From Actinocorallia herbida (GTDB lineage: Bacteria > Actinomycetota > Actinomycetes > Streptosporangiales > Streptosporangiaceae): a stretch of DNA of 64,000 nt. The notes beneath the pieces are model-generated. The model was given only the letters and a program-made list of their open reading frames with translations. It searched no databases and had not been told where the DNA came from. The position numbers and the translations under genes were made by a program. This document shows, one piece after another, positions 35,430-55,528 of the stretch (its first letter is position 1; each line of letters starts with the position of its first letter). Location: positions 2,294,001 to 2,358,000 of the forward strand of contig NZ_RJKE01000001.1 of assembly GCF_003751225.1 (NCBI RefSeq), written 5' to 3'.

Positions 35430-35441
35430 CTGCGGTCTCCT

Positions 35442-36416: not shown

Positions 36417-36458
36417 GGTCCGAGCCTGCCGCGCGTGACGGTCCCCTCTACAGTCCGT

Positions 36459-36475
36459 GTGCCGTACAGCGGCAC
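36459..36475. promoter_or_regulatory. Operator candidate GTGCCG-N5-CGGCAC
   Basis: Perfect 6-bp arms in the 101-nt divergent promoter between the oxidoreductase-mhpB unit and the dioxygenase operon. The position suits one regulator controlling both arms of the pathway. The regulator is unidentified; the XRE-cupin gene at 43887 is one candidate. Confidence 0.55.
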
Positions 36476-36517
36476 GCGCGGTTCCGACGCGCGCGGGGCG
36501 CCGGGTTCCATGGTGGC

Positions 36518-37864: not shown

Positions 37865-38196
37865 GCACCGGCATCAGGGTCGCCGCCGTCGAGGACATCC
37901 CCGAGGGCGAGGGCCTCAAGATCGACAAGAGCGTGACGGGCACGGCGGACGACATCGCGCTCCTGCACGACACCGACGGCTCCATCTGGGCGCTGGACGA
38001 CACCTGCCTGCACGGCGACGCGTCCCTCTCGGAGGGCTGGGTCGAGGACGGCTGCGTCGAGTGCCCGCTGCACACCAGCAGGTTCTGCCTGTCCGACGGC
38101 AAGGTCCAGGGACTGCCCGCGACCGAGGATCAGAAGCCGCACCGGGTCGAGGTCCGCGACGGCGAGGTCTACCTCTTTCCGGGAGAGGCGCCCTGA
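37861..38196 (+). CDS. Rieske ferredoxin of the dioxygenase
   Basis: 111-residue Rieske ferredoxin. Cluster ligands lie in 'CLHGDASL' (Cys-x-His) and 'CPLHTSRF' (Cys-x2-His), about 18 residues apart. It passes electrons from the reductase downstream to the alpha subunit. ATG 37861 overlaps the alpha stop, and its own stop is 1 nt from the reductase start, so the three are tightly coupled. Confidence 0.93.
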   Translation: MSTGIRVAAVEDIPEGEGLKIDKSVTGTADDIALLHDTDGSIWALDDTCLHGDASLSEGWVEDGCVECPLHTSRFCLSDGKVQGLPATEDQKPHRVEVRDGEVYLFPGEAP

Positions 38197-38197
38197 C

Positions 38198-39415
38198 ATG
38201 TCCGACATCGCAAGCGTGGTGATCGTCGGCGGGGGGCTGGCCGGGGTCAGCACCGCCGCCGCGCTGCGGTCCGGCGGCTACGTCGGCGAGCTCTACCTCG
38301 TGGACGCCGGCGCGTTCCCCTACGACCGGCCTCCGCTGTCCAAGGACTTCCTTTCGGGGGCCAAGGACCTCGCGCAGCTCGCCCTCCAGCCCGCGGAGTG
38401 GTACGCCGAGCAGGACGTCAGGCTGCTCAACCGCTCGACGGTCACCTCGGTCGACGCGGACTCCGTGGTGCTGTCCGACGGCACCGTGCTGCCCGCCGAC
38501 CGGATCGTGCTCGCCACCGGCGGACGCGCCGCGCTGCCGCCGATCCCGGGCGCGGACGGCCCGCGCGTCCATGTGCTGCGCGACGTCGAGGACGCCGAAC
38601 GGCTCAAGGCCGCGCTCGTGCCCGGCGCGCGGATCCTCGTGGTCGGCGGCGGCCTGATCGGCGCGGAGACCGCGGCGAGCGCGCTCGCGCTCGGCTGCGA
38701 GGTCGTGCTGGCCGAGCCGGGCACCCCGTTGGCCGCCTCGGTCGGCCCGGAGATGGCCGAGTGGCTGCACGCGATGCACCCCGCGCGCGGCATCGACTGC
38801 CTGGCCGCGCGGGTCCTCGCCTTCGAGGACGGCCCGGACGGCGTCCGGGCGAAGTTCGAGGGCGCCGGCGAAGGACAGGAGCTGCGCGAGTTCGACGCGG
38901 TCGTGGTCGGCGTGGGGCTCGCCCCGCGCACCGGCCTCGCCGAGGCCGCCGGGCTCGAAGTCGACGGCGGCGTCATCGTCGACGCTGGACAGACCACCTC
39001 GAACCCGGCGATCCTCGCGGTCGGCGACTCCGCCCGCCGCCGGATCGACGGCGACCTGCGCCCGTGCGCCGGGCACTGGGAGGCCGCCCAGGACGACGGC
39101 AGGCGCGCCGCCGCGACCATCCTCGGCAAGCCGCTTCCCGCCGAAGGCGCGTCCTGGTGGTGGAGCGACCGGCACGGCGTGCACGTCGAGGCCGTCGGGT
39201 CGATGGCCGCCGCCGACACCACGGTCGTGCGCGGCGCGCCCGGTGCGGCGTTCGCGGTCTTCGGACTGCGCGACGGCAGGGTCGTCGCCGCGGTCGCCGT
39301 GGACGACTCGGGCGCGGTCCGGGCGGCCCGCCGGATGATCGACCGGGGCACCGAGGTCGACGCCGCCGCGCTCGCCGACCTGGCCACCGACCTGCGCAGG
39401 CTGCTGCGCCGCTGA
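38198..39415 (+). CDS. Ferredoxin reductase of the dioxygenase system
   Basis: 405-residue FAD/NAD(P) protein of the HcaD/BphA4 type. FAD motif 'VVIVGGGLAGVSTAAALR' at the start, 'YDRPPLSKDFL', NAD motif 'ILVVGGGLIGAETAASAL' near 150, second FAD motif 'ILAVGDSARRR' near 275. It oxidises NADH and reduces the Rieske ferredoxin encoded just upstream. The order alpha - ferredoxin - reductase - beta is unlike hcaEFCBD. Confidence 0.93.
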   Translation: MSDIASVVIVGGGLAGVSTAAALRSGGYVGELYLVDAGAFPYDRPPLSKDFLSGAKDLAQLALQPAEWYAEQDVRLLNRSTVTSVDADSVVLSDGTVLPADRIVLATGGRAALPPIPGADGPRVHVLRDVEDAERLKAALVPGARILVVGGGLIGAETAASALALGCEVVLAEPGTPLAASVGPEMAEWLHAMHPARGIDCLAARVLAFEDGPDGVRAKFEGAGEGQELREFDAVVVGVGLAPRTGLAEAAGLEVDGGVIVDAGQTTSNPAILAVGDSARRRIDGDLRPCAGHWEAAQDDGRRAAATILGKPLPAEGASWWWSDRHGVHVEAVGSMAAADTTVVRGAPGAAFAVFGLRDGRVVAAVAVDDSGAVRAARRMIDRGTEVDAAALADLATDLRRLLRR

Positions 39416-39457
39416 GCATCCGCGGCGCACCTCCGCCGCCCTGGAGAAGGGACAACC

Positions 39458-40033
39458 GTGAGCATCACCACCGAGCACGCCGTCGGCGAGGCCGGGCGTC
39501 CGGCCGACCGCGACACCCACTTCGAGGTCGAGCAGTTCTACTACCGCGAGGCGTTCCTGCTGGACGAGGGCCGCTACGCCGACTGGCTCGACCTGCTCGC
39601 CGAGGACCTCGACTACTGGATGCCGACCCGCACCAACCGGCTGCGCCGGCAGCAGTCGCTGGCGGTCGCCGCGCGCGGCGAGGCGGCGTTCTACGACGAG
39701 ACGAAGGAGTCGCTGGCCTGGCGGATCAGGCGCTTCGACTCCGGGATGGCCTGGTCGGAGGACCCGCCTTCGCGGACCCGGCACCTGGTCACCAACGTGA
39801 TGGCCGAGCGGGTCGACCCGGGCGAGCACGAGGGGTTCACCCCGGCGGACCTGCTGGTCCGGTCGGCGTTCCTGGTCTACCGGAACCGGCTGGAGCGCGA
39901 GGAGAACGTGTTCGCGGGGAGCCGGACGGACGTGCTGCGGCGCGGCGAGGACGGGGGGCTGCTCGTGGCACGGCGGACGATCCTGCTGGACCAGAACGTG
40001 CTCCTGGCGAAGAACATCTCGACGTTCTTCTGA
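39458..40033 (+). CDS. Aromatic ring-hydroxylating dioxygenase, beta subunit
   Basis: 191-residue SnoaL/NTF2-like beta subunit: 'HFEVEQFYYREAFLLDEGRY' N-terminal helix (split), 'DLDYWMPTR' and C-terminal 'DVLRRGEDGGLLVARRTILLDQ'. It packs against the alpha subunit in an alpha3beta3 enzyme. GTG 39458 follows GGAGAAGGGA. It is separated from alpha by the two electron-transfer genes. Confidence 0.92.
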   Translation: MSITTEHAVGEAGRPADRDTHFEVEQFYYREAFLLDEGRYADWLDLLAEDLDYWMPTRTNRLRRQQSLAVAARGEAAFYDETKESLAWRIRRFDSGMAWSEDPPSRTRHLVTNVMAERVDPGEHEGFTPADLLVRSAFLVYRNRLEREENVFAGSRTDVLRRGEDGGLLVARRTILLDQNVLLAKNISTFF

Positions 40034-40066
40034 CCGCGTCCTCGGTGCGCCGTGGGACTTGTAGCG

Positions 40067-40082
40067 GAAATTTTCTGATTTC
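40067..40082. promoter_or_regulatory. Inverted repeat GAAAT-N6-ATTTC in an A+T-rich gap
   Basis: Lies in the only A+T-rich gap (40034-40109) inside the dioxygenase cluster, just before mhpC. It is a candidate internal promoter or operator. Confidence 0.35.
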
Positions 40083-40109
40083 TCTGACTTTGATTTCGAG
40101 GTTGAGCAC

Positions 40110-40979
40110 GTGAGCGTCATCGAGAACGAACTTCCGATCACTCAGCGCGTGGTGCGGACGTCGCTGGGCGACATCAACGTGGCCGAGGTCGGCTCCGGGC
40201 CCGTGCTGGTCATGCTGCACGGCGGCGGGCCCGGCGCGTCCGGCGTGAGCAACTACCACCAGAACCTTCCGGCGCTCGCCGCGCGGTTCCGCGTGGTGCT
40301 GCCCGACCAGCCCGGCTTCGGCGGGAGCTACCGGCCCACCGAGGCCGACCTGGACGCCCGCTCCATCACCGAGATCACCGTCGACGCGCTCTACCAGGCG
40401 CTCGACGCGCTCGGCATCGAGACGTTCCACCTGCTCGGCAACAGCCTCGGCGGCGCCGCCGCGATCGCGATGGCGCAGGCCAGGCCCGAGCGGGTGACCG
40501 GGCTCGTGCTGATGGCGCCCGGCGGCGGCTGGCTCCCGTTCGGCCCGACCCCGACCGAGGGCCAGAAGGAGATGTTCCGTTACTTCAACGGGACCGGGCC
40601 GTCGGAGAAGAAGATGGCCTCCTTCATCCGGACCATGGTCTTCGACCACAGGCAGTTCGGCGCGGACGTCGTGAAGGCGCGCTACGAGGCGTCCCTCGAC
40701 GAGAGCCACATCGCGTTCTACCACCGCTACAACGCCGCGTTCGCCCAGCGGCACGGCATGGACCCGCTGTGGCGCGACCTGCCCGAGATCAAGGCGCCGA
40801 CGCTGCTGCTGTGGGGCCGCGACGACCGCACGATCACCCTCGAGGGCGCGCAGATCATGCTCAAGTACATCCGGAACGTGCAGCTGCACGTCTTCGGCGA
40901 TTGCGGGCACTGGGTCCAGCTGGAGCGCGCCCGCGAGTTCGAGCGGCACGTCGCGGACTTCCTCGGGGACCTGTCATGA
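40110..40979 (+). CDS. mhpC: Meta-cleavage product C-C hydrolase (MhpC/BphD type)
   Basis: 289-residue alpha/beta hydrolase. Oxyanion 'LHGGGPGASGVSNY', nucleophile elbow 'LLGNSLGGAAA' with Ser112, acid Asp in 'GRDDRTI' and His267 in 'GDCGHWVQLE'. It hydrolyses the ring-fission product made by MhpB to succinate or fumarate plus 2-hydroxypenta-2,4-dienoate. GTG 40110 is used. Its stop overlaps the next ATG (ATGA). Confidence 0.92.
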   Translation: MSVIENELPITQRVVRTSLGDINVAEVGSGPVLVMLHGGGPGASGVSNYHQNLPALAARFRVVLPDQPGFGGSYRPTEADLDARSITEITVDALYQALDALGIETFHLLGNSLGGAAAIAMAQARPERVTGLVLMAPGGGWLPFGPTPTEGQKEMFRYFNGTGPSEKKMASFIRTMVFDHRQFGADVVKARYEASLDESHIAFYHRYNAAFAQRHGMDPLWRDLPEIKAPTLLLWGRDDRTITLEGAQIMLKYIRNVQLHVFGDCGHWVQLERAREFERHVADFLGDLS

Positions 40980-41806
40980 GCTGGCTCCCGGGGTACTCGG
41001 TCCTGATCACCGGGGGAGGCTCGGGCATCGGCCGGGCGGTGGCCGACCGGTTCGTCACCGAGGGCGCGTCCGTGGCGATCTTCGGCAACGACGCGGCGCA
41101 GCTCGCCGAGGCCGCCGCCGGGTCCCCTGACCCGTCGCGGGTGCTGACGGTCGAGGGCGACGTGCGCAGCTCGGCGGACCTGCACCGGGCCGTCGCCGCG
41201 ACGGTCACGCGGTTCGGGAGGCTCGACACCCTCGTCGCCAACGCCGGGATCTGGGACTTCCAGCGGCAGCTCACCCGCCTCGACGCGGCGGCCCTGGAGG
41301 CCACCTTCGACGAGCTGTTCTCGGTGAACGTCAAGGGCTACCTGCTCGCGGCCGAGGCGGCCTGGCGAGAGCTGGTGAAGACGCGCGGCAGCATCATCAT
41401 GACGCTGTCGAACGCCTCCTTCCACGTGAACGGCGGCGGACCCGTCTACACCGCCTCCAAGCACGCCGCCCTGGGCCTCATGCGGGAGCTCGCCTACGAG
41501 CTGGCGCCCAAGGTCCGCGTCAACGGCGTCGCCTGCGGCGGCATGAACACCGACCTGCGCGGCCCGGCCTCGCTCGACATGGGCGAGCGCTCGATCGGCG
41601 CGTCCTTCGCCAAGAAGCGGCCCGACGCGCCGCCGCCGGTCATCCCGCTGCACGACTCCAGCACCGACCCGCGCGACTTCACCGGCTCGTACGTGCTGCT
41701 GGCCTCGCGCGAGCAGAGCGGCCCGATCACCGGCCAGGCGATCTCCGTGGACGGCGGCATCGGCGTGCGCGGCTTCGGCAGCCCCGCCGGCGGCGACCAC
41801 CTCTGA
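40976..41806 (+). CDS. hcaB: cis-Dihydrodiol dehydrogenase, SDR family (HcaB-like)
   Basis: 276-residue short-chain dehydrogenase. Cofactor motif 'LITGGGSGIGRAVAD', 'VANAGIWDF', catalytic Ser/Tyr/Lys in 'TLSNASFHV' and 'YTASKHAAL'. It would oxidise the cis-dihydrodiol from the Rieske dioxygenase to the catechol used by MhpB, making NADH. ATG 40976 is coupled to mhpC. The 'WDF' after NAG and length fit the BphB/HcaB branch. Confidence 0.87.
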   Translation: MSWLPGYSVLITGGGSGIGRAVADRFVTEGASVAIFGNDAAQLAEAAAGSPDPSRVLTVEGDVRSSADLHRAVAATVTRFGRLDTLVANAGIWDFQRQLTRLDAAALEATFDELFSVNVKGYLLAAEAAWRELVKTRGSIIMTLSNASFHVNGGGPVYTASKHAALGLMRELAYELAPKVRVNGVACGGMNTDLRGPASLDMGERSIGASFAKKRPDAPPPVIPLHDSSTDPRDFTGSYVLLASREQSGPITGQAISVDGGIGVRGFGSPAGGDHL

Positions 41807-41822
41807 CGAACCAGGAAAGACG

Positions 41823-43388
41823 ATGAGCGACCCGATCGCCGACATCAATCCGGCAGCCGCCGTGCGCCGGAACGCCCTCGTGCGCCCGGACCACCTCGCG
41901 CTCCGGTACGAAGGCGGCGACCTCACCTATGCCGCGCTGGAGGACCGCGCGGCGCGGCTCGCCTCCGTCCTCGCCGCCGACGGCGTGGGCGAAGGCGACC
42001 GGGTGGCCTACCTGGGGTTGAACAGCTCGTCCTTCCTCGTCGTGCTGCTCGCCGCGGCCAGGATCGGCGCGATCTTCGTGCCGATGAACTTTCGGCTCAC
42101 CGGGCTCGAGTCCCGGTACGTCCTGGCGCGCAGCGAGGCCGTCGCGCTGGTGTGCGAGGAGGGGCTGCGGGACGTCGCGGACACCGCCCGCGCGGGGAGC
42201 CCGGTCCGGCTGCTGCTGCTCGTGGACGACGACGCCGCAGACCCCGTCGTCGGCGCGCCGGGCGACTGGGCGCCTTGGAGTGCGGTGCTCGCCCAGGCGG
42301 CGCCGCTCCCGTCGGCCGTCCGGCGCGGGTTCGACGACCCGGCGATCCTCATGTTCACCTCGGGCACGACCGGGCTGCCCAAGGGAGTCCTGCTCACCCA
42401 CGGGAACCTGTGGTGGAACCAGGTCAACGTCGAGACGGTCGTGGACGCGCGGGTCGGGGACGTCACCCACGCCGCCGCGCCGCTCTTCCACATCGGGGCG
42501 CTCAACAGCTTCGTCCTGCGGGCCCTCGTGCGCGGCGGGACCGTCGTCCTGCGCCGCTCGTTCGACGCGGAGGGCACCCTCGATGATTTCGTCCGGTACG
42601 GGGTGAACACCACGTTCCTGGTTCCGGCGATGCTCGCGACGCTGAGCCGGGTTCCCGGGCTCGCCTCGGCCGATCTGTCCGCGCTGCGGTCCGTGATCGT
42701 CGCCGGGGCGCCCGTGCCGCCGTCGCTCATCGAGGGCTACGCCCGGCACGGGGTGCTGCTCCAGCAGGCGTGGGGCCTGACCGAGACGTCCCCGTTCGCC
42801 ACGCATCTGCCCGCCGAGCTGACCCGGGCCAAGCTGGGTTCCGCCGGGCTGCCGATGCCGCACACCGAGGTCCGTGTCGTGGACTCCGCCACCGGCCGCC
42901 CGGTGCCCGCGGGCGTCGCGGGCGAGGTCGTCGTGCGCGGCCCGAACGTCACGCCCGGCTACTGGCGGAACGAGGAGGCGACCCGGGCGGCCTTCGACGC
43001 CGAGGGCTGGTTCCACTCCGGCGACGTCGGCCACTTCGACGCCGACGGCTTCCTCTACATCGTCGACCGGCTCAAGGACCTGATCATCACTGGCGGGGAG
43101 AACGTCTACCCGGCCGAGGTCGAACGGGTGCTGTCCGACATTCCCGGCGTGGTCGACGTGGCCGTCGTGGGGACCCCCGACGAGAAGTGGGGCGAGAAGG
43201 TCGTCGCCGTCGTGACCCTCGAGCCCGGCGCGTCGCTCACCTATGAGGCCGTGCGGGACCACGCCGACGGCCGCCTGGCTCGGTACAAGCTGCCCAAGGA
43301 GTTGAAGATCGTCTCCTCGGTGCCGCGCAACGCGTCCGGCAAACTGGACAAACTCGAGATCCGCCAGCTCGCCGGCAAGGAGGACTGA
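41823..43388 (+). CDS. Acyl-CoA/aryl-CoA ligase (AMP-binding)
   Basis: 521-residue ANL-superfamily ligase. P-loop 'LMFTSGTTGLPKGVLL', 'QAWGLTETSPF', 'YLDGWFHSGD'-like 'EGWFHSGDVGHFDADGF', hinge 'DRLKDLIITGGENVYP' and catalytic Lys in 'RNASGKLDKLE'. It activates a carboxylic acid as the CoA thioester; in this cluster that may be phenylpropionate, cinnamate or a fatty acid. ATG 41823 lies 17 nt after hcaB. The aryl or acyl choice cannot be read with confidence. Confidence 0.9.
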   Translation: MSDPIADINPAAAVRRNALVRPDHLALRYEGGDLTYAALEDRAARLASVLAADGVGEGDRVAYLGLNSSSFLVVLLAAARIGAIFVPMNFRLTGLESRYVLARSEAVALVCEEGLRDVADTARAGSPVRLLLLVDDDAADPVVGAPGDWAPWSAVLAQAAPLPSAVRRGFDDPAILMFTSGTTGLPKGVLLTHGNLWWNQVNVETVVDARVGDVTHAAAPLFHIGALNSFVLRALVRGGTVVLRRSFDAEGTLDDFVRYGVNTTFLVPAMLATLSRVPGLASADLSALRSVIVAGAPVPPSLIEGYARHGVLLQQAWGLTETSPFATHLPAELTRAKLGSAGLPMPHTEVRVVDSATGRPVPAGVAGEVVVRGPNVTPGYWRNEEATRAAFDAEGWFHSGDVGHFDADGFLYIVDRLKDLIITGGENVYPAEVERVLSDIPGVVDVAVVGTPDEKWGEKVVAVVTLEPGASLTYEAVRDHADGRLARYKLPKELKIVSSVPRNASGKLDKLEIRQLAGKED

Positions 43389-44631: not shown

Positions 44632-46197
44632 CTAGGTCTGCGCCGGGGTGTAGAGGGCGCGGATCTCGGTGCGGTGGAGCTTGCCGGTTCGGGTGCGGGG
44701 GAGGGACGGGACCACGGTGGCGGTGCGGGGGATCTTGTAGGTGGCGAGGACGCCGCGCAGCGAGGCCAGGACGGTGGCGGTGTCGAGCGCGGTGTCGCGG
44801 GCGGGGACGAGGAGGGCGTGGCCCACCTCGCCCCAGTCAGGGTGGGGGACGCCGATGACGGCGCATTCGGCGACGCCGGGGATGCCGGAGATGACGCGTT
44901 CGACCTCGGCGGGGTAGATGTTCTCGCCGCCGGAGATGATGACCTCCTTGAGGCGGTCCACGATCTGGAAGGCGCCGTCGGGGGAGCGGCGGGCTATGTC
45001 GCCGGTGCGGAGGCCGCCGTCGGAGAGGGCCGCGGCGGTCTCCTCGGGGCGGCCCCAGTAGCCCGCCATGACGTTCGGGCCGGCGGCCAGGAGCTCGCCG
45101 GCGCCGTCGGGGGAGCCCGGCAAGGGGGACAGGCGGACGTCGGTGAAGAAGTGGGGGACCAGGCCCGTGCCCGAGTCCACCAGGACGCCAGGGGACGCCT
45201 CCGTCAGGCCGTAGCCCTCCCGGACGGCCACGCCGCGGGCCTCGTACAGGGCCTTGAGGTCGGGAGGGACGGGGGCGCCGCCGCACAGGAGGGTGCGCAG
45301 GCTCGTCAGGTCCGCACTCCCGAAACTGGGGACGGCGGCCATCCGCGCCAGCATCGTGGGCACGGCGAACATCGAGGTGACGCGGTGGCGGGCGATGAGG
45401 TCGAGGGTGCGGGAGGCGTCGAAGGACTCCGCGAGCAGGCAGGTCCCGCCCTTCAGCAGGACGGGGAGGGCCAGCATGTTCAGCGCCGCGGCGTGGAAGA
45501 GCGGGGCCGTCACCAGGGCGACCTCGGCGCCGGTCAGATCGAGGTCGACCAGCACGTTGAGGCAGTTCCACAGGACGTTGCCGTGAGTGAGGACGGCGCC
45601 CTTGGGGCGTCCCGTCGTGCCCGACGTGTAGAGGATGAGGCACGGGTCGGCGGCCCGCACCGGCTCGGCGAGGTCGGACGGGGACACCGCGGAAAGGGCT
45701 GCCTCGTACTCCGTGCCACCCACCGGATAAATACGGACAGAACTATTCAAAGCAGGCGCAGATATCAGGGCGTCGCACAGCAGAACGCGCGCGCCGCAGT
45801 CCGCGAGCTGATGGTCGATCTCGGGCGCAGACAGCAGTGAGTTGAGCGGAACGAAGACCCCGCCGAGCATCCCGACGGCGACGAGCCCTTCCAGAAAACC
45901 GGGACGATTCAGACCGAGGTAAGCCACCCGGTCGCCCGTTCCGACTCCGTCGGCCCGCAGTAGATGCGCGAGCCGCGTCGCGCGCTCGTGCAACGCCGCG
46001 TAGGTGAGCGTCACCGACGGCGCGCCACCGCGGCCGTCCGTCGCGAAGCCCTGTGCCACGGGCTTGTGGACGATCGCCGGGCGGTTCCCGGAGCGCTCCG
46101 CGCGGCGCCGGATCCAGGACGCGACACCCGTGACGGTGTCGGGTTCGTCCCGGTCGGCGGGCGTGCCGAAGTGCGGGTCGAGCAGGTGGTCGCGCAT
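44632..46197 (-). CDS. Acyl-CoA/aryl-CoA ligase (AMP-binding), divergent from the ammonia-lyase operon
   Basis: 521-residue ANL ligase: 'LILYTSGTTGRPKGAVL' P-loop, 'REGYGLTEASPG', 'GLRTGDIARRSPDGAFQ', hinge 'DRLKEVIISGGENIYP' and catalytic Lys in 'RTRTGKLHR'. All core motifs are intact. It is divergent from the P450-KS-KS'-ammonia-lyase operon (115-nt gap), so activation of p-coumarate or cinnamate to its CoA ester is a reasonable proposal, not shown. ATG 46197 is used. Confidence 0.88.
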   Translation of the reverse strand: MRDHLLDPHFGTPADRDEPDTVTGVASWIRRRAERSGNRPAIVHKPVAQGFATDGRGGAPSVTLTYAALHERATRLAHLLRADGVGTGDRVAYLGLNRPGFLEGLVAVGMLGGVFVPLNSLLSAPEIDHQLADCGARVLLCDALISAPALNSSVRIYPVGGTEYEAALSAVSPSDLAEPVRAADPCLILYTSGTTGRPKGAVLTHGNVLWNCLNVLVDLDLTGAEVALVTAPLFHAAALNMLALPVLLKGGTCLLAESFDASRTLDLIARHRVTSMFAVPTMLARMAAVPSFGSADLTSLRTLLCGGAPVPPDLKALYEARGVAVREGYGLTEASPGVLVDSGTGLVPHFFTDVRLSPLPGSPDGAGELLAAGPNVMAGYWGRPEETAAALSDGGLRTGDIARRSPDGAFQIVDRLKEVIISGGENIYPAEVERVISGIPGVAECAVIGVPHPDWGEVGHALLVPARDTALDTATVLASLRGVLATYKIPRTATVVPSLPRTRTGKLHRTEIRALYTPAQT

Positions 46198-46250
46198 GTC
46201 CGCTCCCGTCGGTAAGTCTCACAAGTGCGCGTTTGGATTGGCGCATCCCG

Positions 46251-46296
46251 GTAATTGCTACGGATGGCAACATCATAGTTACTTGGTGTAATTGCT
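46251..46296. promoter_or_regulatory. Divergent promoter with GTAATTGCT direct repeat
   Basis: GTAATTGCT occurs at 46251-46259 and 46288-46296 in the A+T-rich gap between the ligase and the P450 operon. It is a candidate regulator site. Confidence 0.35.
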
Positions 46297-46312
46297 GGTG
46301 GGAGGGGTGGGC

Positions 46313-47605
46313 ATGGTGGAAGCCGGACCGGGCACCGCGGCGCTGATGGACGCGCGCGTGCGGCACAGCCCGGAGGGCGAGCGCATCGACACCCGGGACG
46401 AGCCTCCGGTCTGGCGGGCGCCGCTGCCCGACGGCACCTTCGTCTGGACGGTCTCGGGGTTCGACGCCGCGCGCAAGGCGCTCGGCGAGCCGACGTTCGC
46501 GCGGTCGTTCAGCGAGCCGGGCGGCGACAGGTGGAAGGAGTACCTCTGGTTCTCCGAGCCGCCCGTCACCGACAGCATCGTGCGCAGCATGTTCAACACC
46601 GACGGCGAGGCGCACCGGAGGCTGCGCGCCCTCGGGGCCGCGGCCATCACCTCCGAGCGGATCGCGCGCGCCGCGCACGACGCGGCCTCGGTCGCGGCCG
46701 AGCGGCTCGCCGCGATCGCCGACCGGGGGGAGGCCGACCTCGTCGCCGACTTCTGCCACCCGTTCGTGCTCGACATCGCCGCCGAGATGTTCGGCTATCC
46801 GGCCGAGATCATCCGCCGGATCCGCGCGCTGCCCCGCTGGGCGCCGGCCCCGCTGTTCGAACCCGAGGGTTCGCCCGAGCGGGTGCGCTACGGCGCCGAA
46901 CGCGAGGAGATGGTGACGCTCCTGTACGACCTCCTCGCCGCGTGCCGCCGCGACCCGGGCCCCGACGGGGTGAGCGCCATGCTCGCCCTCGCCGCCGAGA
47001 CCGGGATGGACGACCAGGAGCTCACCTCGACGGTCTTCGCGACGCTCCTGGCCGTCACCGAGCCCGTCACGGACTTCCTCACCACCGCGCTGTACAGCCT
47101 GTGGTCCCGGCCGGGCCTCGCCGAAGATCCGGACGCGGTCGAGCGGGGGATGGAAGAGTTGCTCAGGTACACCACACCGGTCGCCGCGCCGATGCCGCGC
47201 CTGGTCACCAGGCCGCTCGCGTTCCACGGGGCCTATCTGGAACCCGGGGACGCGGTCGTGGTCCATCTGGGCCTGGCCAACCGCGACCCGAGCCGGTTCG
47301 ACCAGCCGAACCGGCTCGATCTGTCTCGGGAGGTAGGCAACGACCTGGCCTTCGCGCACGGTCCGCACCACTGCCTATCGCCCTCTCTGGGCGAGCACCT
47401 CTGCCGGACCGTACTGATGGCGGTCCTGCGCGGCCTGTCCGACCTCGCCCCGGCCCGTTCCCTGGACGAGCTGCCTTGGCGGCCCGGGTGCACCGGGCCC
47501 TTCACCCGTTTCCACGTCACGTCCGGGCTGGCCGAACTGCCCGTCACGTTCCGGCCCGCGTCCCGAGACGCGGTGGCGGCCCGCGCGGCGACGGGGGTGG
47601 CGTGA
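46313..47605 (+). CDS. Atypical cytochrome P450
   Basis: 430-residue P450-like protein heading the operon. ExxR ('MEELLRY') and the heme Cys354 are present, but the heme motif reads 'FAHGPHHCLSPSLGEHL': Ser replaces the near-invariant Gly two residues after Cys. The I-helix oxygen motif is degenerate ('LLAVTEPVTDFL', Pro where Thr should be). Loss of Thr suggests peroxygenase-like, dehydratase-like or non-oxidative chemistry, or a structural role. ATG 46313 follows GGGAGGGG. Its stop overlaps the ketosynthase start by one base (TGATG). Confidence 0.85.
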   Translation: MVEAGPGTAALMDARVRHSPEGERIDTRDEPPVWRAPLPDGTFVWTVSGFDAARKALGEPTFARSFSEPGGDRWKEYLWFSEPPVTDSIVRSMFNTDGEAHRRLRALGAAAITSERIARAAHDAASVAAERLAAIADRGEADLVADFCHPFVLDIAAEMFGYPAEIIRRIRALPRWAPAPLFEPEGSPERVRYGAEREEMVTLLYDLLAACRRDPGPDGVSAMLALAAETGMDDQELTSTVFATLLAVTEPVTDFLTTALYSLWSRPGLAEDPDAVERGMEELLRYTTPVAAPMPRLVTRPLAFHGAYLEPGDAVVVHLGLANRDPSRFDQPNRLDLSREVGNDLAFAHGPHHCLSPSLGEHLCRTVLMAVLRGLSDLAPARSLDELPWRPGCTGPFTRFHVTSGLAELPVTFRPASRDAVAARAATGVA

Positions 47606-48693
47606 TGGCGCACGTCACCGGCCTTTCCACGCTCACCGCCTACGGCCCCGGGCTCACCGCCCTCTGGGACGGGATCTCTTCGGGCACCCCGGCGGTCTCG
47701 CCCGTCACCAGGTTCGAGACGAGGCACCACCGCGCGCACCACGCCGCGGTGCTGCCCGGCGATCCCGACCTTTTCGAGGCGCTGCGCGGCCTTGTCGAGG
47801 AGGCTTGTACGCAGGCCGGCCTTACGCCCGAGCAGCGCGCGACGACCCCGCTGGTCCTCGCCGTCCACGCGGGCCGCGACACCACGGCCAAGGCCGCCGC
47901 CCTCGCCGAGGCGTGCGGGCTGCGCGGGGTCGCGGCGATCCACACCGCGGCCTGCGCCGCGTCCAACTCGGCGCTCGCCGACGCCGCGGAACTCATCACC
48001 TACCTCGTCGAGGACCGGGTGGTCGTCGCCGGAGGCAGCTTCGTCGACCCGAGCATGTTCGCGGCGTTCGACAGCGCGGGCATCCTCACCGCCGAGGGCG
48101 TCAGCAGGCCGTTCAGCGCGGGCCGCAGCGGTCCGATCCTGGGCGACGGCGCGGCCGCGGCGGTCCTGGAACGCGACGGCTCGCGGCCCGACCTGCCCGG
48201 CGCCTGGCTGCGCGTCACGGGGTGGGGCAACACGTCCGAGGCGCACCACGTGGTCCGGCCGCGCGCCGACGGACGGGGCCCGGCCGAGGCGATCACCAAG
48301 GCGCTGGCCCGCGCGGGAAGCCCCCGCGTCGGATACGTCAACGCGCACGCCACCGCCACGCCGGCGTTCGACGCGGCGGAGGCCGCCGCGATCCTGCGCG
48401 GCCTGGCGGGTCAGCCCGGAGACCCCGGGGGAGCCGCCGACGTCCGGGTCAGCTCCACCAAGGCGCTGCACGGCCACTGCCTGGAAGGGTCGGGGCTCGT
48501 CGAGATGGCCGTGTGCGCGCTCTCGTTCCGCAACGGGCGGCTCCCGGTCAACGCCGGATTCGCCGGCCCGGACGCGGACTGCCCGCTCAACCTCGTGCTG
48601 GACACCGGGCAGGCCCCGGAGACCGGCCACATGCTCAGCCTCAACACCGGTTTCGGCGGTGTCAGCACCGCCCTCGTCCTGGCGGCGCCATGA
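47605..48693 (+). CDS. Ketosynthase (beta-ketoacyl-ACP synthase-like)
   Basis: 362-residue thiolase-fold ketosynthase, about 50 residues shorter than FabF. The active site is complete: Cys117 in 'HTAACAASNSAL', His248 in 'VNAHATATP', Lys286 and His291 in 'SSTKALHGHCLEGSG'. It should condense an acyl starter with a malonyl unit. Translation is coupled to the P450 upstream (1-nt overlap) and the short ketosynthase downstream (ATGA). No acyl carrier protein gene is seen nearby. Confidence 0.87.
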   Translation: MAHVTGLSTLTAYGPGLTALWDGISSGTPAVSPVTRFETRHHRAHHAAVLPGDPDLFEALRGLVEEACTQAGLTPEQRATTPLVLAVHAGRDTTAKAAALAEACGLRGVAAIHTAACAASNSALADAAELITYLVEDRVVVAGGSFVDPSMFAAFDSAGILTAEGVSRPFSAGRSGPILGDGAAAAVLERDGSRPDLPGAWLRVTGWGNTSEAHHVVRPRADGRGPAEAITKALARAGSPRVGYVNAHATATPAFDAAEAAAILRGLAGQPGDPGGAADVRVSSTKALHGHCLEGSGLVEMAVCALSFRNGRLPVNAGFAGPDADCPLNLVLDTGQAPETGHMLSLNTGFGGVSTALVLAAP

Positions 48694-49277
48694 ACACCAC
48701 AACGCAAGCGCACCCGGCCGGAACCCGCGCGAAGGCGGTCCCGACCCCTTCCGACGGCGAGGCCGTCCTGACGGTCCTCGCGGAGGAGCACTGGCCGCCT
48801 TCCGGCGAGGCCGATCCGCGGCTCCCGGACGTCCCGCGCTGGGACGTCTCCTTCTTCGCCCCGCTCCTCATGGCGGCCGCCGAACCCTGCCTCACCCGGC
48901 ATTTCGGCGCGCCGCCGCTGGCGACCGAGGTGGGCGACCGGGTCGCCCTCGTCATGGTGTCGACCCGCGGCGACGCGGTCACCCAGGGCGCGATCGACGA
49001 GGCGACCGCGGAACCAAGGCCGGTGCCCAAGCACCTGCTGTTCCAGAACGTGCCCAGCACCGCGCCCGGCCACCTCGCCGCGCTGTGGGGGCTCTCCGGT
49101 CCCTTCGTCACCCTCCTGGCCGCCGGCGCCCCGCTGGCCGCGGCCCGCGAGCGGGCGGCCCGCCTCATCGCGACGGGCGACGCCGACCATGTCCTGGCCG
49201 TCGCACTGGACCCGGGCGACCACCCGAGCCGTCCCGGCACGGCGCAGGCCCAGTTGCTGGCGGCTTCCGGCCGATAG
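48690..49277 (+). CDS. Short ketosynthase-like / chain-length-factor-like protein
   Basis: 195 residues with the N-terminal ketosynthase half-fold only ('NVPSTAPGHLAALWGLSGPF', 'ARLIATGDADHVLAVALD'). The position of the active-site Cys is occupied by a non-Cys ('GPFVTLLAAGAPL'). This resembles the short 'chain length factor' partners found with aryl polyene and flexirubin ketosynthases. It likely pairs with the preceding ketosynthase. ATG 48690 is coupled by ATGA. The match to that family is inferred from pattern, not from a search. Confidence 0.65.
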   Translation: MNTTTQAHPAGTRAKAVPTPSDGEAVLTVLAEEHWPPSGEADPRLPDVPRWDVSFFAPLLMAAAEPCLTRHFGAPPLATEVGDRVALVMVSTRGDAVTQGAIDEATAEPRPVPKHLLFQNVPSTAPGHLAALWGLSGPFVTLLAAGAPLAAARERAARLIATGDADHVLAVALDPGDHPSRPGTAQAQLLAASGR

Positions 49278-49307
49278 GCCGCCGCCCACACACCACCAGG
49301 AGGAGAC

Positions 49308-50795
49308 ATGTCCGTCGACCAGCTACCCGTGACGGCAACGCTGGTGTTCCCGGCGAGGCTGACCCCGGAGGCGCTCGAACAGGCCGCCGCGCCCGTCGCC
49401 GTGACGCTCGACGAGGGCGCCAGGAACGCCGTCGTGGGCTGCCACGACTTCCTGCACCTGTGCCTGGCCGAAGGCCGCGAGATCTACGGCGCGACGACGG
49501 GGTTCGGCCCGCTCGTCACCTTCGCCGGGCAGAAGGAGGCGGCCGACCAGTGCGAGAACCTGCTGTTCCACCTGGAGGTCGGCCAGGGCGCCGACCTCCC
49601 TCCCGCGATCGCCCGCGCGGCGCTGCTCGCCCGGGTCTGGACGCTCTCGCAGGGCAGATCGGGTGTTTCCCTGGCCGTCATCGACGCGCTGCGGGCCACC
49701 CTGGCGACGTCGTTCGCCCCGGCCATCCCGGAGTTCGGGTCGGTCGGCGCGAGCGGTGACCTCGCCCCGATGGCGCACGCCGTCCGGGCGCTCCAGGGCC
49801 GCGGCCAGGCCTATCTCGGCGAGGTCCGGATGAACGCCGGCGAGGCGCTCACCCGGGCGGGGCTCGTCCCGCTGGAACTGACCGGCCGCGACGCGCTCGC
49901 GCTGGTCAACGGCACGTCCGTCACCTCGGCGGCCGCGGGCCTGGCGCTCACCGCGCTCTCCCGCAGCCTGGCCGCGGCGACCGCGCTGACCGCGCTCATG
50001 GCCGACGTCCTCGGCTGCCGGAGCGACTTCGTCGTGCCGGAGATCTTCGAGGCGCTCGGCCACGACGACACCGCGGGGCAGGCCGCGGTGCTGCGCGCGC
50101 ATCTCGCCGACCACGTCCCGGGCGCGGAACGGCCGCTCCAGGAGCCGTACACGCTGCGCTGCGCGCCGCACCTGCTGGGCGCGTCGGCGACCAGCCTGCG
50201 GCACGCCCGCCAGGTCGTCACCGACGACCTCAACGGGGTCAGCGACAACCCGCTGCTCTTCCCGGAACGCGACGTCATCGCGCACGGAGGCAACTTCTTC
50301 GGCCAGCAGGTCGCGTTCGCCGCCGACCTGATGTCGATCACCGCGACCCAGATGGCCAACCTCGCGGAACGCCAGCTCGACCTGCTCATCGACCCGCACC
50401 GCAACGGCGGCCTCAATCCGGTCCTCGCCGAGGCGCCCGGCCGCGATCACGGCGTCCAGGGCGTCCAGCTGGCCGCCACATCCCTGGTCGCCCGCATGCG
50501 CCGCCGGGCCGTTCCGGCCTCCATGCAGAGCATTCCCACCAACCACCACAACCAAGACATCGTGCCATTCGGCACGCAGGCGGCCCTGACGGCCCACGAG
50601 CAGGCCCAGACCCTGCGTCTGCTCCACGGCTCTCTGGCGGTGGCCCTGGTCCAGGCGGTCCGGGTGGGCGCCCGCCGTCCGACCACGACCGCCGGCGCCC
50701 GCCTCGCGGACGCCCTGGACGCGGCGCTGTCCGCGGACATCCCGTGGGCGACCCGGGTCCGCCGCGCGGCCGACATCCTCGACACCGCGGTCTGA
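49308..50795 (+). CDS. Aromatic amino acid ammonia-lyase, probably tyrosine (TAL-like)
   Basis: 495-residue MIO enzyme of the HAL/PAL/TAL family. The cofactor triad Ala148-Ser149-Gly150 is in 'GSVGASGDLAPMAH'. Tyr60 ('REIYGATTGFGP'), 'LALVNGTS', 'YTLRCAPHLLG', 'SDNPLLF' and 'NHHNQDIVPFGTQ' are conserved. The selectivity pair is His88-Leu89 ('LLFHLEVG'), equal to the His-Leu of tyrosine ammonia-lyase (Phe-Leu in PAL, Ser-His in HAL), so tyrosine to p-coumarate is expected. An aminomutase is possible. It lies 30 nt after the KS' gene. Confidence 0.88.
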   Translation: MSVDQLPVTATLVFPARLTPEALEQAAAPVAVTLDEGARNAVVGCHDFLHLCLAEGREIYGATTGFGPLVTFAGQKEAADQCENLLFHLEVGQGADLPPAIARAALLARVWTLSQGRSGVSLAVIDALRATLATSFAPAIPEFGSVGASGDLAPMAHAVRALQGRGQAYLGEVRMNAGEALTRAGLVPLELTGRDALALVNGTSVTSAAAGLALTALSRSLAAATALTALMADVLGCRSDFVVPEIFEALGHDDTAGQAAVLRAHLADHVPGAERPLQEPYTLRCAPHLLGASATSLRHARQVVTDDLNGVSDNPLLFPERDVIAHGGNFFGQQVAFAADLMSITATQMANLAERQLDLLIDPHRNGGLNPVLAEAPGRDHGVQGVQLAATSLVARMRRRAVPASMQSIPTNHHNQDIVPFGTQAALTAHEQAQTLRLLHGSLAVALVQAVRVGARRPTTTAGARLADALDAALSADIPWATRVRRAADILDTAV

Positions 50796-52262
<1,467 letters not shown>

Positions 52263-52330: not shown

Positions 52331-52915
52331 TCAGACGAAGGGGAGCTCCACCTCGTCCAGGGCGGCGGAGATGTGCTTCTGGAGCGGGACGGCGCAGGCG
52401 TCGTCGAACCAGAGGTGGCCGCCGGTGCGGATGGCGGAGAGGAAGGCGGCCGCGACGACGCGGCCGCGCTCGCGGGTACAGTCATCGCGGTCCACGACGC
52501 GCTCGGAGAGGTCGCGTTCCAGATCGGCCTGCCCCGCGAGGAGCCGGGCGAGAAGGCACGGGTGACGACGGGCCAGCCTTGAGCGCTCCGCCCATTCGGG
52601 GTCGGGCAGCCGCATCGGGGCGAGCAGCAGGTCGGTGGCCGCGCGCAGGGCCTCCCAGCCGGACAGCCCGGCGGGCTGGCGGTCGACGGTGACCAGCAGC
52701 ATCCGAAAGAGATCCTCCTCACCGAACATGACGGCCTCGGCCTTGTCGGTGAAGTAGTTGAAGAAGGTGCGGCGGGAGATGTTGGCCGCGTCGGCGATCT
52801 CCTCGACGGTCACCTTGTCGTAGCCGTGCTCGGTCGCCAGGCGGATCGCGGCATGGTGGACGGCCCGCCGGGTGTCGGCCTTCTTCTGCTCGCGCAGGCC
52901 GTGCGTGCTGGTCAT
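52331..52915 (-). CDS. TetR family regulator of the adjacent exporter
   Basis: About 194 residues. HTH at about 10-60 ('VTVEEIADAANISRRTFFNYFTDKAEAV') with a normal C-terminal ligand domain. Met 52915 is preferred (GGGG just upstream), with Met 52924 as alternative. It is divergent from the DHA2 exporter, and a perfect GTGCAA-CT-TTGCAC palindrome sits between them, so repression of that exporter is likely. Confidence 0.88.
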   Translation of the reverse strand: MTSTHGLREQKKADTRRAVHHAAIRLATEHGYDKVTVEEIADAANISRRTFFNYFTDKAEAVMFGEEDLFRMLLVTVDRQPAGLSGWEALRAATDLLLAPMRLPDPEWAERSRLARRHPCLLARLLAGQADLERDLSERVVDRDDCTRERGRVVAAAFLSAIRTGGHLWFDDACAVPLQKHISAALDEVELPFV

Positions 52916-52954
52916 GGACCCCATGGTATGCAGAATTCGAGCTTTCTGCCCAGT

Positions 52955-52968
52955 GTGCAACTTTGCAC
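52955..52968. promoter_or_regulatory. TetR operator candidate GTGCAACTTTGCAC
   Basis: Perfect 6-bp arms with a 2-nt centre, plus a third half-site (TGTGCA, 52971-52976), in the 102-nt region between TetR and the DHA2 exporter. Confidence 0.6.
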
Positions 52969-53017
52969 GATGTGCAGGTAGTCTGAGGAAGTTCAATCGT
53001 TACTTGGGGGACGTCTG

Positions 53018-55528
53018 GTGACAAACACGGCATCTGAGACCAAAAGCCACTCGGAGATCATGAGATCTCTGATCGGCCTGCTCACGGTCATGGGCATCGG
53101 CCTGATGAGCAGCACCATCGTTTCGGTGGCGCTGCCGCAGATCGTCGGTTCACTGGGCGGCTCTCAGTCCCAGTACACGTGGGTCGTCACCGCGACGCTC
53201 CTGACCACCACCGCGACGACCCCCATCTGGGGCAGGCTCGCGGACCTCTTCAACAAGAAGCTGCTGCTCCAGGTGGGCATCGCCATCTTCGTGGTGGCGA
53301 CCATCGCCTGTGGCTTCGCGCAGACCACCAGCCAGCTGATCGCGTTCCGCGCGTTCCAGGGCATCGGCGCGGGCGCGCTCCAGGTCCTGGTGCAGGTGAT
53401 CATCGCCGCGATGATCCCGCCGAAGGAGCGCGGCAAGTACAACGGTTACCTCGGCGGCGTCATGGCGTTCGCCACGGTCGGCGGCCCGCTCGTCGGCGGC
53501 GTGATCTCGGACTCGTTCCTCGGCTGGCGCTGGTGCTTCTTCATCGCGGTGCCGTTCCTCGCGATCGCGGTGACCGTGCTGCAGAAGTTCCTCCACATCA
53601 CGCATGTGCGCAAGGAGGGCGTCAAGATCGACTACTGGGGCGCGACCCTCATCGCGGCCGCCGTCTCCGTGCTCCTGCTCTGGGTCACCTTCGCCGGTGA
53701 CTCCTTCGACTGGCTGTCCTGGCAGACCGGCGCCATGCTCGGCGGGACCATCGTGCTCCTGGTCATCGCGATCTTCGTCGAGCTCCGCCACCCGCAGCCC
53801 GTCGTCCCGATCCGCATCGTCAAGCAGCGCACCCCCGCGCTGGCGATCATCGCCAGCCTCGCGGTCGGCATGGCGATGTTCGGCGGCTCGGTCTTCCTCG
53901 GCCAGTACTTCCAGATCGGCCGCGGCTACTCGCCCACCCAGGCGGGCCTGCTGACCATCCCGATGATGCTCGGGGTGCTGGTCGCCTCGACGATCACCGG
54001 CCGGATCATCAGCAAGACCGGCAGCGTGCGCCCGCACGTGATCTTCGGCCTCGTCGTCCTCATCGTGGGCTTCGGCCTGATGTCCGTGATCGACCACGAG
54101 ACCAGCCTCGTCTACATCGGGGTCGCCATCGCGCTCATCGGCGCCGGCGTCGGCGCGTCGATGCAGAACCTGGTCCTGATCGTGCAGAACGGCGTGCACA
54201 TCCGCGACATGGGCGCGGCGAGCGCCTCGGTCACGTTCTTCCGGTCCCTCGGCGGCACCATCGGCGTCTCGGTGCTGGGCGCCATCCTGGCCACCCGCGT
54301 CGCCGACCTGATCAAGGACGGCTTCGCCAAGATCGGCATCACCCCGACCGGGGGCCAGGGCGGCAACCTCGACGTCGCGTCGCTGCCGGCGCCGCTCGCC
54401 GAGATCGTCCGCTCGGCCTACGGCGACGCCACCGGGCACATCTTCCTGGTCTCGCTCGGGATCGCGGTCGTCGGCCTCGTCGCGGCCCTGTTCCTCAGGC
54501 CGCAGACCCTGCGCGAGAGCCTTGAGCTCCAGGACGAGCCCGTCGTCAAGGCCGCCGAGATGACGACCCCGGACCTCGCCGGCCGCCACGCGGCCCCCGA
54601 GCCCGTCGCCGTCTCGGTGACCAGCGGCGCGAGCGCCTCGGTGACCAGCGGTCCCGTGGCCACGGTCACCACCCTGACCACCGCCGAGCGGGAGTACGAG
54701 CTGCGGGGAGAGGGCCCGGCGGAGACCACCGACGGCTTCCTGATCCCGGCCGGGCTCCGCGAGGAGCACCCCGAGCCGCGGAACCGCGAGCCCGAGGTCG
54801 TCCGGGTCCAGGCGCGCGGTCCGCGCCACCTGCACCCGAGCGGCAGGCGCGAGCGGATCACCAGCAACGCGCTGCTGATCAGCGCGGTCGTGGTCATCGG
54901 CGCCGCGGGCGCCGGGTTCGTCGCCTTCCAGGGCGGCCAGGACCAGACCGACGTGGCCCGCGACGGCGTCACGGTCTCCCAGCAGGCCCAGGCCGCCGAC
55001 CAGTACACCAAGGCGGTCCGCCAGCTCGGCGCGGCCAAGGCCGAGGTGCGCACCGGCGCGGTCTACACGCTGGAGCGGGTCGCCGCCGACTCGCCGCGCG
55101 ACCGCCAGGCGGTCGTGGGCGTCCTCGCCGCATTCGTCCGGGCGCACACCCCGGCCGCGGGCGAGGTCGTCCCGGCGACGCCGCCGACCGACATCGCCGT
55201 CGCGCTGAAGGTCATCGGCCGGCAGCCGCACCAGACCGGGGAGAACGTCGACCTCTCGGCGATCGCCGTCCGCGGCGCGGACCTGTCCGGCGCGGACCTG
55301 CGCGGGGCCAACCTCGCCGGGGCCGACCTGCGGAAGGTCGACCTGACCGGGGCCGACCTGGAAGGCGCGAACCTGACGGGCGCGCGCCTGAAGAACGCGG
55401 TCCTGACGGACGCCAACCTGTCGGGCGCCGACCTGCGGAACGCCAAGGGCGTCACGCCGGCGGAGCTCCAGGCCATGACGACCCGGATGGAGGGCACCGC
55501 CCTGGGCACCGACCCCTCGGTCGGCTAA
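53018..55528 (+). CDS. DHA2 drug exporter fused to a membrane-anchored pentapeptide-repeat domain
   Basis: 836 residues. Residues 1 to about 505 are a 14-helix EmrB/QacA-type exporter ('[14 protein letters not shown]' motif A; '[16 protein letters not shown]' motif C). A Thr/Glu-rich linker follows, then an extra helix at about 616-637 ('[21 protein letters not shown]' split). Next is a helical segment ('[16 protein letters not shown]') typical of pentapeptide proteins and about 13 A(D/N)LxG pentapeptides (about 744-808). Exporters normally end near 500. GTG 53018 is used. The TetR gene is divergent. The pentapeptide part may shield a target such as gyrase, by analogy. Confidence 0.9.

What the first reader, a model, noticed from the sequence alone, without database searches (positions are those of the whole stretch)
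44632..50795. Minimal TAL - ketosynthase - KS' - P450 operon with divergent CoA ligase
P450, KS, short KS' and an MIO ammonia-lyase are locked together (1-nt overlap, 4-nt overlap, 30-nt gap) and end in a perfect palindrome terminator. A CoA ligase is divergent. A tyrosine ammonia-lyase, an aryl-CoA ligase and a KS/CLF pair are the start of aryl polyene and flexirubin pathways. Here there is no ACP, ketoreductase, dehydratase or acyltransferase. The set could make a short p-coumaroyl ketide, with the aberrant P450 acting on it. I do not know a described cluster of this exact make-up.
Basis: partly seen in the sequence, partly recalled or inferred. Interest (0 to 1): 0.82.

Follow-up and report, generated by a model that had tools for sequence, protein, structure and literature searches.

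The report
ACP-less tyrosine-to-aryl-ketide gene set
Five genes that travel together in several soil bacteria look like a compact, undescribed route that turns tyrosine into p-coumaroyl-CoA and extends it with an unusual half-sized ketosynthase pair, without the carrier protein that such enzymes normally have beside them.

Summary
CoA ligase (44632-46197, -), P450, KS, half-length KS' and MIO lyase (46313-50795, +) form a tight operon followed by a 28-nt perfect palindrome. P450-KS-KS'-MIO recurs in order in all 9 loci found (Actinocorallia, Streptomonospora, Streptomyces), the divergent ligase in 8 of 9; flanks differ between genera, so it is a self-contained unit. The ligase is closest to feruloyl-CoA synthetase. 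The KS is neither aryl-polyene nor AmcF: it is a fully supported clade within a KS-KS' family whose other clusters carry an ACP beside the KS (16 of 17) and usually an aromatic-precursor gene (14 of 17). No ACP was found in the 9 operon loci (about 20 kb each, 64 kb for the window). Best reading: Tyr to p-coumaroyl-CoA, then condensation with malonate by the KS-KS' pair, tailored by an odd P450 with Pro for the I-helix Thr. Every reaction, the carrier (CoA or a borrowed ACP) and the product are inferred. Seven open-access full-text searches aimed at it listed no description of the set.

The parts
44632..46197 (-). hydroxycinnamoyl-CoA-type acyl-CoA ligase (divergent)
   Evidence: Pfam AMP-binding; best solved-structure match feruloyl-CoA synthetase 8wev/8weu, 481 bits, next best 266 bits; beside the operon in 8 of 9 loci
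46198..46312 (.). divergent intergenic region with a short inverted repeat, candidate operator or promoter
   Evidence: eight intergenic regions aligned, weak conserved core; no sigma-70 consensus site
46313..47605 (+). cytochrome P450 with the Cys ligand but Glu-Pro in place of the I-helix acid-Thr pair
47605..48693 (+). ketosynthase with Cys-His-Lys-His catalytic residues and a shortened N-terminal part
48690..49277 (+). KS': half-length ketosynthase partner without a Cys at the catalytic position (short chain-length / cyclization-factor type)
49308..50795 (+). MIO ammonia-lyase with tyrosine-type selectivity residues
50824..50851 (.). 28-nt perfect palindrome after the operon, possible terminator
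   Evidence: no T-tract

Best explanation
A minimal aryl-ketide pathway. (1) The MIO enzyme deaminates tyrosine to p-coumaric acid. (2) The divergent ligase makes p-coumaroyl-CoA. (3) The KS-KS' heterodimer loads the p-coumaroyl group on its Cys and condenses it with a malonyl unit, most likely once, giving a p-hydroxycinnamoyl diketide, with CoA thioesters (or a carrier protein borrowed from fatty-acid synthesis) in place of a dedicated ACP. (4) The P450, whose gene overlaps that of the KS, oxidises or cyclises the ketide. Shown by sequence: the gene set, its conservation, residue signatures, KS ancestry, no linked ACP found. Inferred: every reaction, the heterodimer, the number of extensions, the carrier and the product. 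In effect it would do with a ketoacyl-synthase-fold pair what chalcone- or benzalacetone-type (type III) synthases do.
For: Order P450-KS-KS'-MIO in 9 of 9 loci found, divergent ligase in 8 of 9, with different neighbours in each genus; dN/dS 0.20-0.33 for the four operon genes among three Streptomyces. Lyase: ASG triad and His-Leu at the TAL selectivity site in 9 of 9, Gln where histidase has Glu. Ligase: feruloyl-CoA synthetase by a wide margin. KS: catalytic Cys, His, Lys, His in 8 of 8 aligned (L105 not aligned). Ancestry: operon KSs are one clade (100/100) inside a KS-KS' clade (100/100); of 17 other clusters of this kind 14 carry an HPPD-like or PabAB gene and 16 an adenylate-forming ligase presumed to load the ACP; the nearest sister pair L094/L095 has PabAB plus an AurF-type N-oxygenase. 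ACP beside the KS in 16 of those 17, none found in 9 of 9 operon loci.
Against: No metabolite or assay. The best-scoring family models for the lyase are two histidase models (334 and 312 bits), though far below cut-off, and His-Leu also occurs in 18 of 21 homologues outside the operon, so it is not a mark of this operon. AmcF, which uses an ACP, shares with the operon KSs the Gly at a FabF position that is Arg in 13 of 15 ACP-type relatives, so that change is no proof of ACP independence. S. ruber has no ligase beside the operon, only a 57% homologue on another contig. KS' is far below the AmcG cut-off (23.9, 20.0 and no match). An ACP elsewhere in the genome is not excluded. The residues checked do not separate a lyase from an aminomutase.
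Confidence: 0.55

Rival explanations
1. Same pathway, but ACP-dependent in trans: KS-KS' uses the cell's fatty-acid ACP and FabD, as the cispentacin system recruits FabI and presumably FabD.
For: The family is ACP-linked in 16 of 17 other clusters examined; recruitment of FabI is shown and of FabD presumed in the cispentacin pathway (PMC10698177, parts 1-3 of 8 seen).
Against: In 9 of 9 operon loci no ACP was found, and the ligase family that accompanies the ACPs is replaced by a CoA-ligase type.
Confidence: 0.3
2. The KS-KS' pair is an acyltransferase or joins two p-coumaroyl groups (ester, curcuminoid-like), and is not a malonyl-extending synthase.
For: Condensing enzymes do this in other pathways (recalled); a UbiD close to bagremycin/ferroverdin BagN/FevL sits beside the sister cluster L094 (805 bits, cut-off 1000).
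Against: The Cys-His-Lys-His set of a decarboxylating KS is kept in 8 of 8 aligned.
Confidence: 0.15
3. The MIO enzyme is a tyrosine aminomutase and the pathway activates and extends beta-tyrosine.
For: The tyrosine 2,3-aminomutase model matches at 240 bits (cut-off 501); active-site residues overlap.
Against: The ligase is closest to feruloyl-CoA synthetase, a cinnamate-type enzyme. No aminomutase model reaches half its cut-off, but no lyase model reaches its cut-off either.
Confidence: 0.08
4. The operon is part of phenylpropanoid breakdown, together with the hca/mhp-type cluster just upstream in this window.
For: 34491-43388 encodes phenylpropionate/cinnamate dioxygenase-like subunits, a dihydrodiol dehydrogenase and an MhpB-type dioxygenase.
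Against: Six genes of that cluster have no match (E 1e-10) in the roughly 20 kb held of each of the 8 other operon loci; a ketosynthase pair and a tyrosine lyase do not fit catabolism.
Confidence: 0.04

Closest known systems
Cispentacin / coronafacate KS-CYF pair AmcF-AmcG (Hibi 2023, PMC10698177)
   Same: Short KS with an even shorter partner that lacks the functional motifs; a single C2 extension in AmcF-AmcG, expected here
   Different: KS lies in a separate clade, both proteins are below the curated cut-offs, no linked ACP found, and an aryl instead of a 2-oxoglutarate starter gene set
Unnamed KS-KS' clusters with HPPD-like or PabAB genes (L011, L012, L060-L062, L064, L094-L099, L130, L131)
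   Same: KS of the same clade where put in the tree (L130 and L131 were not) and aromatic precursor genes
   Different: An ACP beside the KS in all but L099, and another type of ligase; none has a MIO lyase in the DNA held
Aryl polyene ApeO-ApeC
   Same: Half-sized partner; ApeC 6qsp_B has the highest query TM-score of the 50 rows shown, 0.66, though only rank 47 by E-value; aryl starter
   Different: KS not in the branches of the E. coli KSs taken as aryl-polyene; no DH or ACP found, no KR in the operon
Naringenin pathway of Streptomyces clavuligerus (Tal, Ncs, NcyP; PMC8773403)
   Same: TAL, p-coumaroyl starter, condensing enzyme with an adjacent P450
   Different: The condensing enzyme there is a type III chalcone synthase; here it is a ketoacyl-synthase-family pair and the lyase gene is in the operon

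Membership tests
AmcF-AmcG (KS-CYF) type II PKS | KS above the NCBIfam AmcF cut-off (325 bits) | tested here: not met
   119.5 bits in the window, 125-143 in four other operon KSs; the six KSs over the cut-off in 199 Streptomyces score 486-587
AmcF-AmcG (KS-CYF) type II PKS | partner above the AmcG cut-off (80 bits) | tested here: not met
   23.9, 20.0 and no match for three operon KS'
AmcF-AmcG (KS-CYF) type II PKS | linked ACP (amcB) | tested here: not met
   no ACP found in 9 of 9 loci
AmcF-AmcG (KS-CYF) type II PKS | 2-oxoglutarate-loading ligase (amcH) | tested here: inconclusive
   ligase is nearest to feruloyl-CoA synthetase; AmcH itself was not compared
Aryl polyene KS-CLF | KS groups with aryl polyene KSs | tested here: not met
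   two KSs of E. coli CFT073, taken as aryl-polyene from their neighbours and recalled location, fall outside the KS-KS' clade, on long branches
Aryl polyene KS-CLF | half-length CLF with the N-terminal half of the KS fold | tested here: met
   model pLDDT 85.9; ApeC TMq 0.66, VIA Z 14.9 (rank 33; best KAS Z 17.5)
FabF / KASII | above TIGR03150 cut-off (493.75 bits) | tested here: not met
   172.6 bits
Type III PKS (chalcone synthase) | chalcone/stilbene synthase family | tested here: not met
   Pfam gives ketoacyl-synt families only
Tyrosine ammonia-lyase | MIO Ala-Ser-Gly triad | tested here: met
   9 of 9
Tyrosine ammonia-lyase | His at the Tyr/Phe selectivity site | tested here: met
   9 of 9 operon enzymes, and 18 of 21 homologues outside the operon; Phe in the two Actinocorallia paralogues
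Tyrosine ammonia-lyase | activity on tyrosine | not testable with these tools
   needs an enzyme assay
Histidine ammonia-lyase | above TIGR01225 cut-off (539 bits); Glu in the NQED motif | tested here: not met
   311.9 bits, and 333.9 of 524 for PRK09367, yet these are the best-scoring models; Gln instead of Glu in the alignment to 1gkm
Hydroxycinnamoyl-CoA ligase | nearest solved relative is a feruloyl/coumaroyl-CoA ligase | tested here: met
   8wev 481 bits against 266 for the next
Hydroxycinnamoyl-CoA ligase | activity on p-coumarate | not testable with these tools
   needs an enzyme assay
Cytochrome P450 monooxygenase | heme Cys and ExxR | tested here: met
   Cys, Glu and Arg in 8 of 8 operon P450s aligned (L105 not aligned)
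Cytochrome P450 monooxygenase | I-helix acid-alcohol (Thr) pair for oxygen activation | tested here: not met
   Glu-Pro in 8 of 8 aligned

The most novel reading that the evidence does not exclude
A type II-lineage ketosynthase pair that lost its ACP and works directly on CoA thioesters, so that bacteria evolved a chalcone/benzalacetone-synthase-like step from a KS-KS' heterodimer; the product would be a new family of p-coumaroyl ketides tailored by a P450 that does not use the normal oxygen-activating Thr.
Probability: 0.3. Interest if true: 0.85.

Novelty: new variant of a known kind. Interest (0 to 1): 0.62.

Why it matters
If true, a five-gene, 6-kb set makes phenylpropanoid ketides in bacteria by a route that is neither plant-type (type III) nor carrier-protein-based type II. 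It would make directly testable whether a type II KS can be freed of its ACP, which matters for engineering, and it marks an aryl-associated KS-KS' family, spread over several actinobacterial families, for which I found no description.

Tried and rejected
Routine FabF paralogue: rejected by cut-off and tree. Histidase: rejected on residues and cut-off, although histidase models score best. Member of AmcF/AmcG: rejected by cut-off and tree. Aryl-polyene descent: rejected, with the caveat that the two E. coli KSs are named aryl-polyene by me, not by the record. Class-III aminotransferase 50859-52262 as a pathway gene: rejected, since Actinocorallia sp. API 0066 has under 100 bp between lyase and TetR and no match to it in the 20 kb held. 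TetR/MFS 52331-55528 as core: kept in the second Actinocorallia only; the two Streptomonospora loci have a MarR-like regulator and another MFS. Loss of an ACP-docking Arg as proof of ACP independence: rejected, AmcF lacks it too. Plasmid carriage: one plasmid record at E 1e-40, 46% identical. Promoter and terminator consensus scans gave nothing. The KS-KS' complex was not modelled: the folding tool takes one protein, and both jobs went to KS' and P450. No VIA-align run was made for the P450 model.

Rows left out: of 14 further Streptomyces KSs (L112-L125), seven (L118-L124) were dropped before the trees to thin them; L105, L130 and L131 were not put into the trees; L105 is not in the KS, KS' and P450 alignments; L013-L015 were fetched but not counted, as their KS is only 30-34% identical and no KS' match was found. 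The 17 other KS clusters are the non-operon KS matches at E 1e-50 or better (nine; eight); a KS' match was found in 15 of the 17 (not in L063 and L100). The ten ACP queries from such clusters came from nine of the 17, which match themselves by construction; the precursor queries came from L011, L094 and L095.
Full report
OBSERVATION. Spacings of 1-nt overlap, 4-nt overlap and 30 nt are confirmed. After the lyase stands a 28-nt perfect palindrome (50824-50851), the only perfect palindrome of at least 20 nt in the window; it lacks a loop and a T-run, and the terminator scan found nothing. Pfam gives AMP-binding, p450, ketoacyl-synt N and C (KS), the N part alone (KS'), and Lyase_aromatic.

CONSERVATION. 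P450-KS-KS'-MIO is present in order in 9 of 9; the divergent ligase beside it in 8 of 9. S. ruber is the exception: its closest ligase homologue (57%) is on another contig, beside genes that read like pentose-phosphate enzymes. In one search the P450 frame ends on the first base of the KS in five of six loci as called (in L067 my caller missed the frame). Flanks differ between genera: TetR and an MFS transporter in Actinocorallia; a MarR-like gene and another MFS in Streptomonospora, with a DnaX-like gene on the other side in L054; a DeoR-like regulator, a transporter and sugar-kinase-like genes in three of the Streptomyces (labels outside the window are from reading the translations, not from a family search). 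Frequency: KS matches at E 1e-50 or better in 13 of 341 family genomes, four of them operon carriers at 66% identity or more; the lyase search agrees on the same four among 23 of 341 genomes matched at E 1e-130, all other matches being 53-59% identical; 2 operon carriers in 394 sampled class genomes, ten matches in all; 3 of 392 sampled Streptomyces at E 1e-130; six loci from 54 pattern hits in the genome collection. dN/dS among three Streptomyces is 0.20-0.33 for KS, KS', MIO and P450.

ENZYMES. Lyase: ASG triad, YGxTTGFG loop, and His-Leu at the position that is His in chain 2o6y and Phe in chain 2o78 (that these are Rhodobacter TAL and its His-to-Phe mutant is recalled). All 9 operon enzymes have His-Leu; so do 18 of 21 homologues outside the operon, while the two Actinocorallia paralogues and one other have Phe. 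It has Gln where histidase 1gkm has Glu. Against this, the best-scoring family models are histidase models (334 and 312 bits); it is below every curated cut-off, TAL models included, so it is a branch of its own. Ligase: 481 bits to feruloyl-CoA synthetase 8wev, next best 266; the other ligase in the window, 41823-43388, gives 352 to the same chain. KS: Cys, His, Lys and His in 8 of 8 aligned. KS': model with pLDDT 85.9 and pTM 0.80; Foldseek and VIA-align place it on the N-terminal half of KAS enzymes (best Z 17.5, rmsd 2.8, 170 residues) and on the half-length ApeC (Z 14.9, TMq 0.66); a profile alignment puts no Cys at the catalytic position. [quoted passage not shown] P450: nearest CYP107X1 by profile and fold, model pLDDT 80.9; heme Cys kept in 8 of 8 aligned; the acid-Thr pair reads Glu-Pro in 8 of 8. 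Arg-Pro in CYP152 peroxygenases is a recalled parallel.

ANCESTRY OF THE KS. A 42-row tree with FabF, FabB, two E. coli KSs taken as aryl-polyene KSs (from their gene neighbours and recalled location; the record does not call them so), six AmcFs above cut-off, seven other Streptomyces KSs, two KSs from within related clusters, 15 related KS loci and eight operon KSs puts the operon KSs in one clade (100/100) within a KS-KS' clade (100/100, 23 rows), apart from AmcF (100/100), FabF and the two E. coli rows (without these two). The E. coli rows are long and their exact place is unsure; both outputs warn of long branches. The nearest sister (97/86, 93/84) is L094/L095: PabAB, AurF-type N-oxygenase and SDR by family search in L094, a DAHP-synthase-like frame by reading, and two ACP-like genes. 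Seventeen other clusters of this kind were examined, all the non-operon matches: an ACP beside the KS in 16 (not L099), a homologue of the ligase that accompanies the ACP in 16 (not L101), an HPPD-like gene in 10 and PabAB in 4, together 14 of 17 with an aromatic precursor gene, a KS' match in 15, and a MIO lyase in none. Some of these loci supplied the queries and match themselves by construction (see Tried and rejected). None of the nine operon loci has an ACP: the best hit is E 0.31-0.34 over 25 residues in L105. FabD, FabH and a dehydratase gave no hit there at E 1e-5, and FabG only the catabolic SDR of the window. For all but the window this covers only the 20 kb or so held, and in L055 the operon lies near a contig end.

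READING. There is a KS-KS' family linked to aromatic precursors, in which the operon clade has, in place of the ACP and its ligase, a tyrosine-type ammonia-lyase and a hydroxycinnamoyl-CoA-type ligase. The simplest pathway is Tyr, p-coumarate, p-coumaroyl-CoA, then C2 extension and P450 tailoring. AmcF-AmcG performs a single extension plus cyclisation, with FabI and presumably FabD recruited from fatty-acid synthesis (PMC10698177, parts 1-3 of 8 and a term search seen). The main text of that paper has no hit for ammonia-lyase, coumar, cinnam, P450 or CoA ligase. A functional parallel with a type III synthase is naringenin in S. clavuligerus: Tal, Ncs and the P450 NcyP, all needed for naringenin (PMC8773403, passages seen).

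LIMITS. Nothing here shows a reaction. Whether the carrier is CoA or a borrowed ACP is open; the Arg-to-Gly change at a FabF docking position is shared with AmcF and so proves nothing. Lyase versus aminomutase is undecided by sequence. That the set is undescribed rests on seven searches of an open-access library aimed at it; three further searches were for other points. The papers in these listings other than the three named above were seen as listings only.

On recounting I examined the two remaining KS loci (L130, L131), which raised the counts from 15 to 17 clusters, and tested the catabolic and fatty-acid genes in all nine loci.

Noticed in passing
34491-43388: A 3-phenylpropionate/cinnamate breakdown cluster (HcaE-, HcaF-, HcaD- and HcaB-like proteins, MhpB-type dioxygenase, hydrolase, a second feruloyl-CoA-synthetase-like ligase) lies just upstream of the operon in this strain; six of its genes have no match in the DNA held of the 8 other operon loci.
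   Followed up: partly
53018-55528: An EmrB-type MFS transporter fused to a C-terminal pentapeptide-repeat domain; the same fusion, 70% identical, follows the operon in Actinocorallia sp. API 0066.
   Followed up: partly
50859-52262: Class-III aminotransferase directly after the palindrome, with no match in the 20 kb held of the close relative.
   Followed up: partly
46198-46312: Divergent intergenic region with a short inverted repeat by eye (TTGC-N8-GCAA here, ATTAC-N5-GTAAT in L067 and L069), possibly an operator.
   Followed up: no
L059 (own genome, contig 1, 4745235-4746701): A second MIO lyase, 57% identical, with Phe-Leu instead of His-Leu at the selectivity site, so possibly phenylalanine-type.
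   Followed up: no
L034-L050: A further MIO lyase group (56-58% identical, His-Leu site) in other genomes of the family, in the two loci looked at (L057, L058) beside an FAD-monooxygenase-like frame and a CoA-ligase-like frame.
   Followed up: no
L011, L012, L060-L062, L096-L098, L130, L131: KS-KS' clusters with ACPs, an HPPD-like enzyme and a PhyH-like dioxygenase, most with pyruvate-dehydrogenase-like E1 subunits; product unknown to me.
   Followed up: partly
L094 14103-15575: UbiD decarboxylase close to bagremycin/ferroverdin BagN/FevL (805 bits, cut-off 1000) beside the sister KS-KS' cluster.
   Followed up: no
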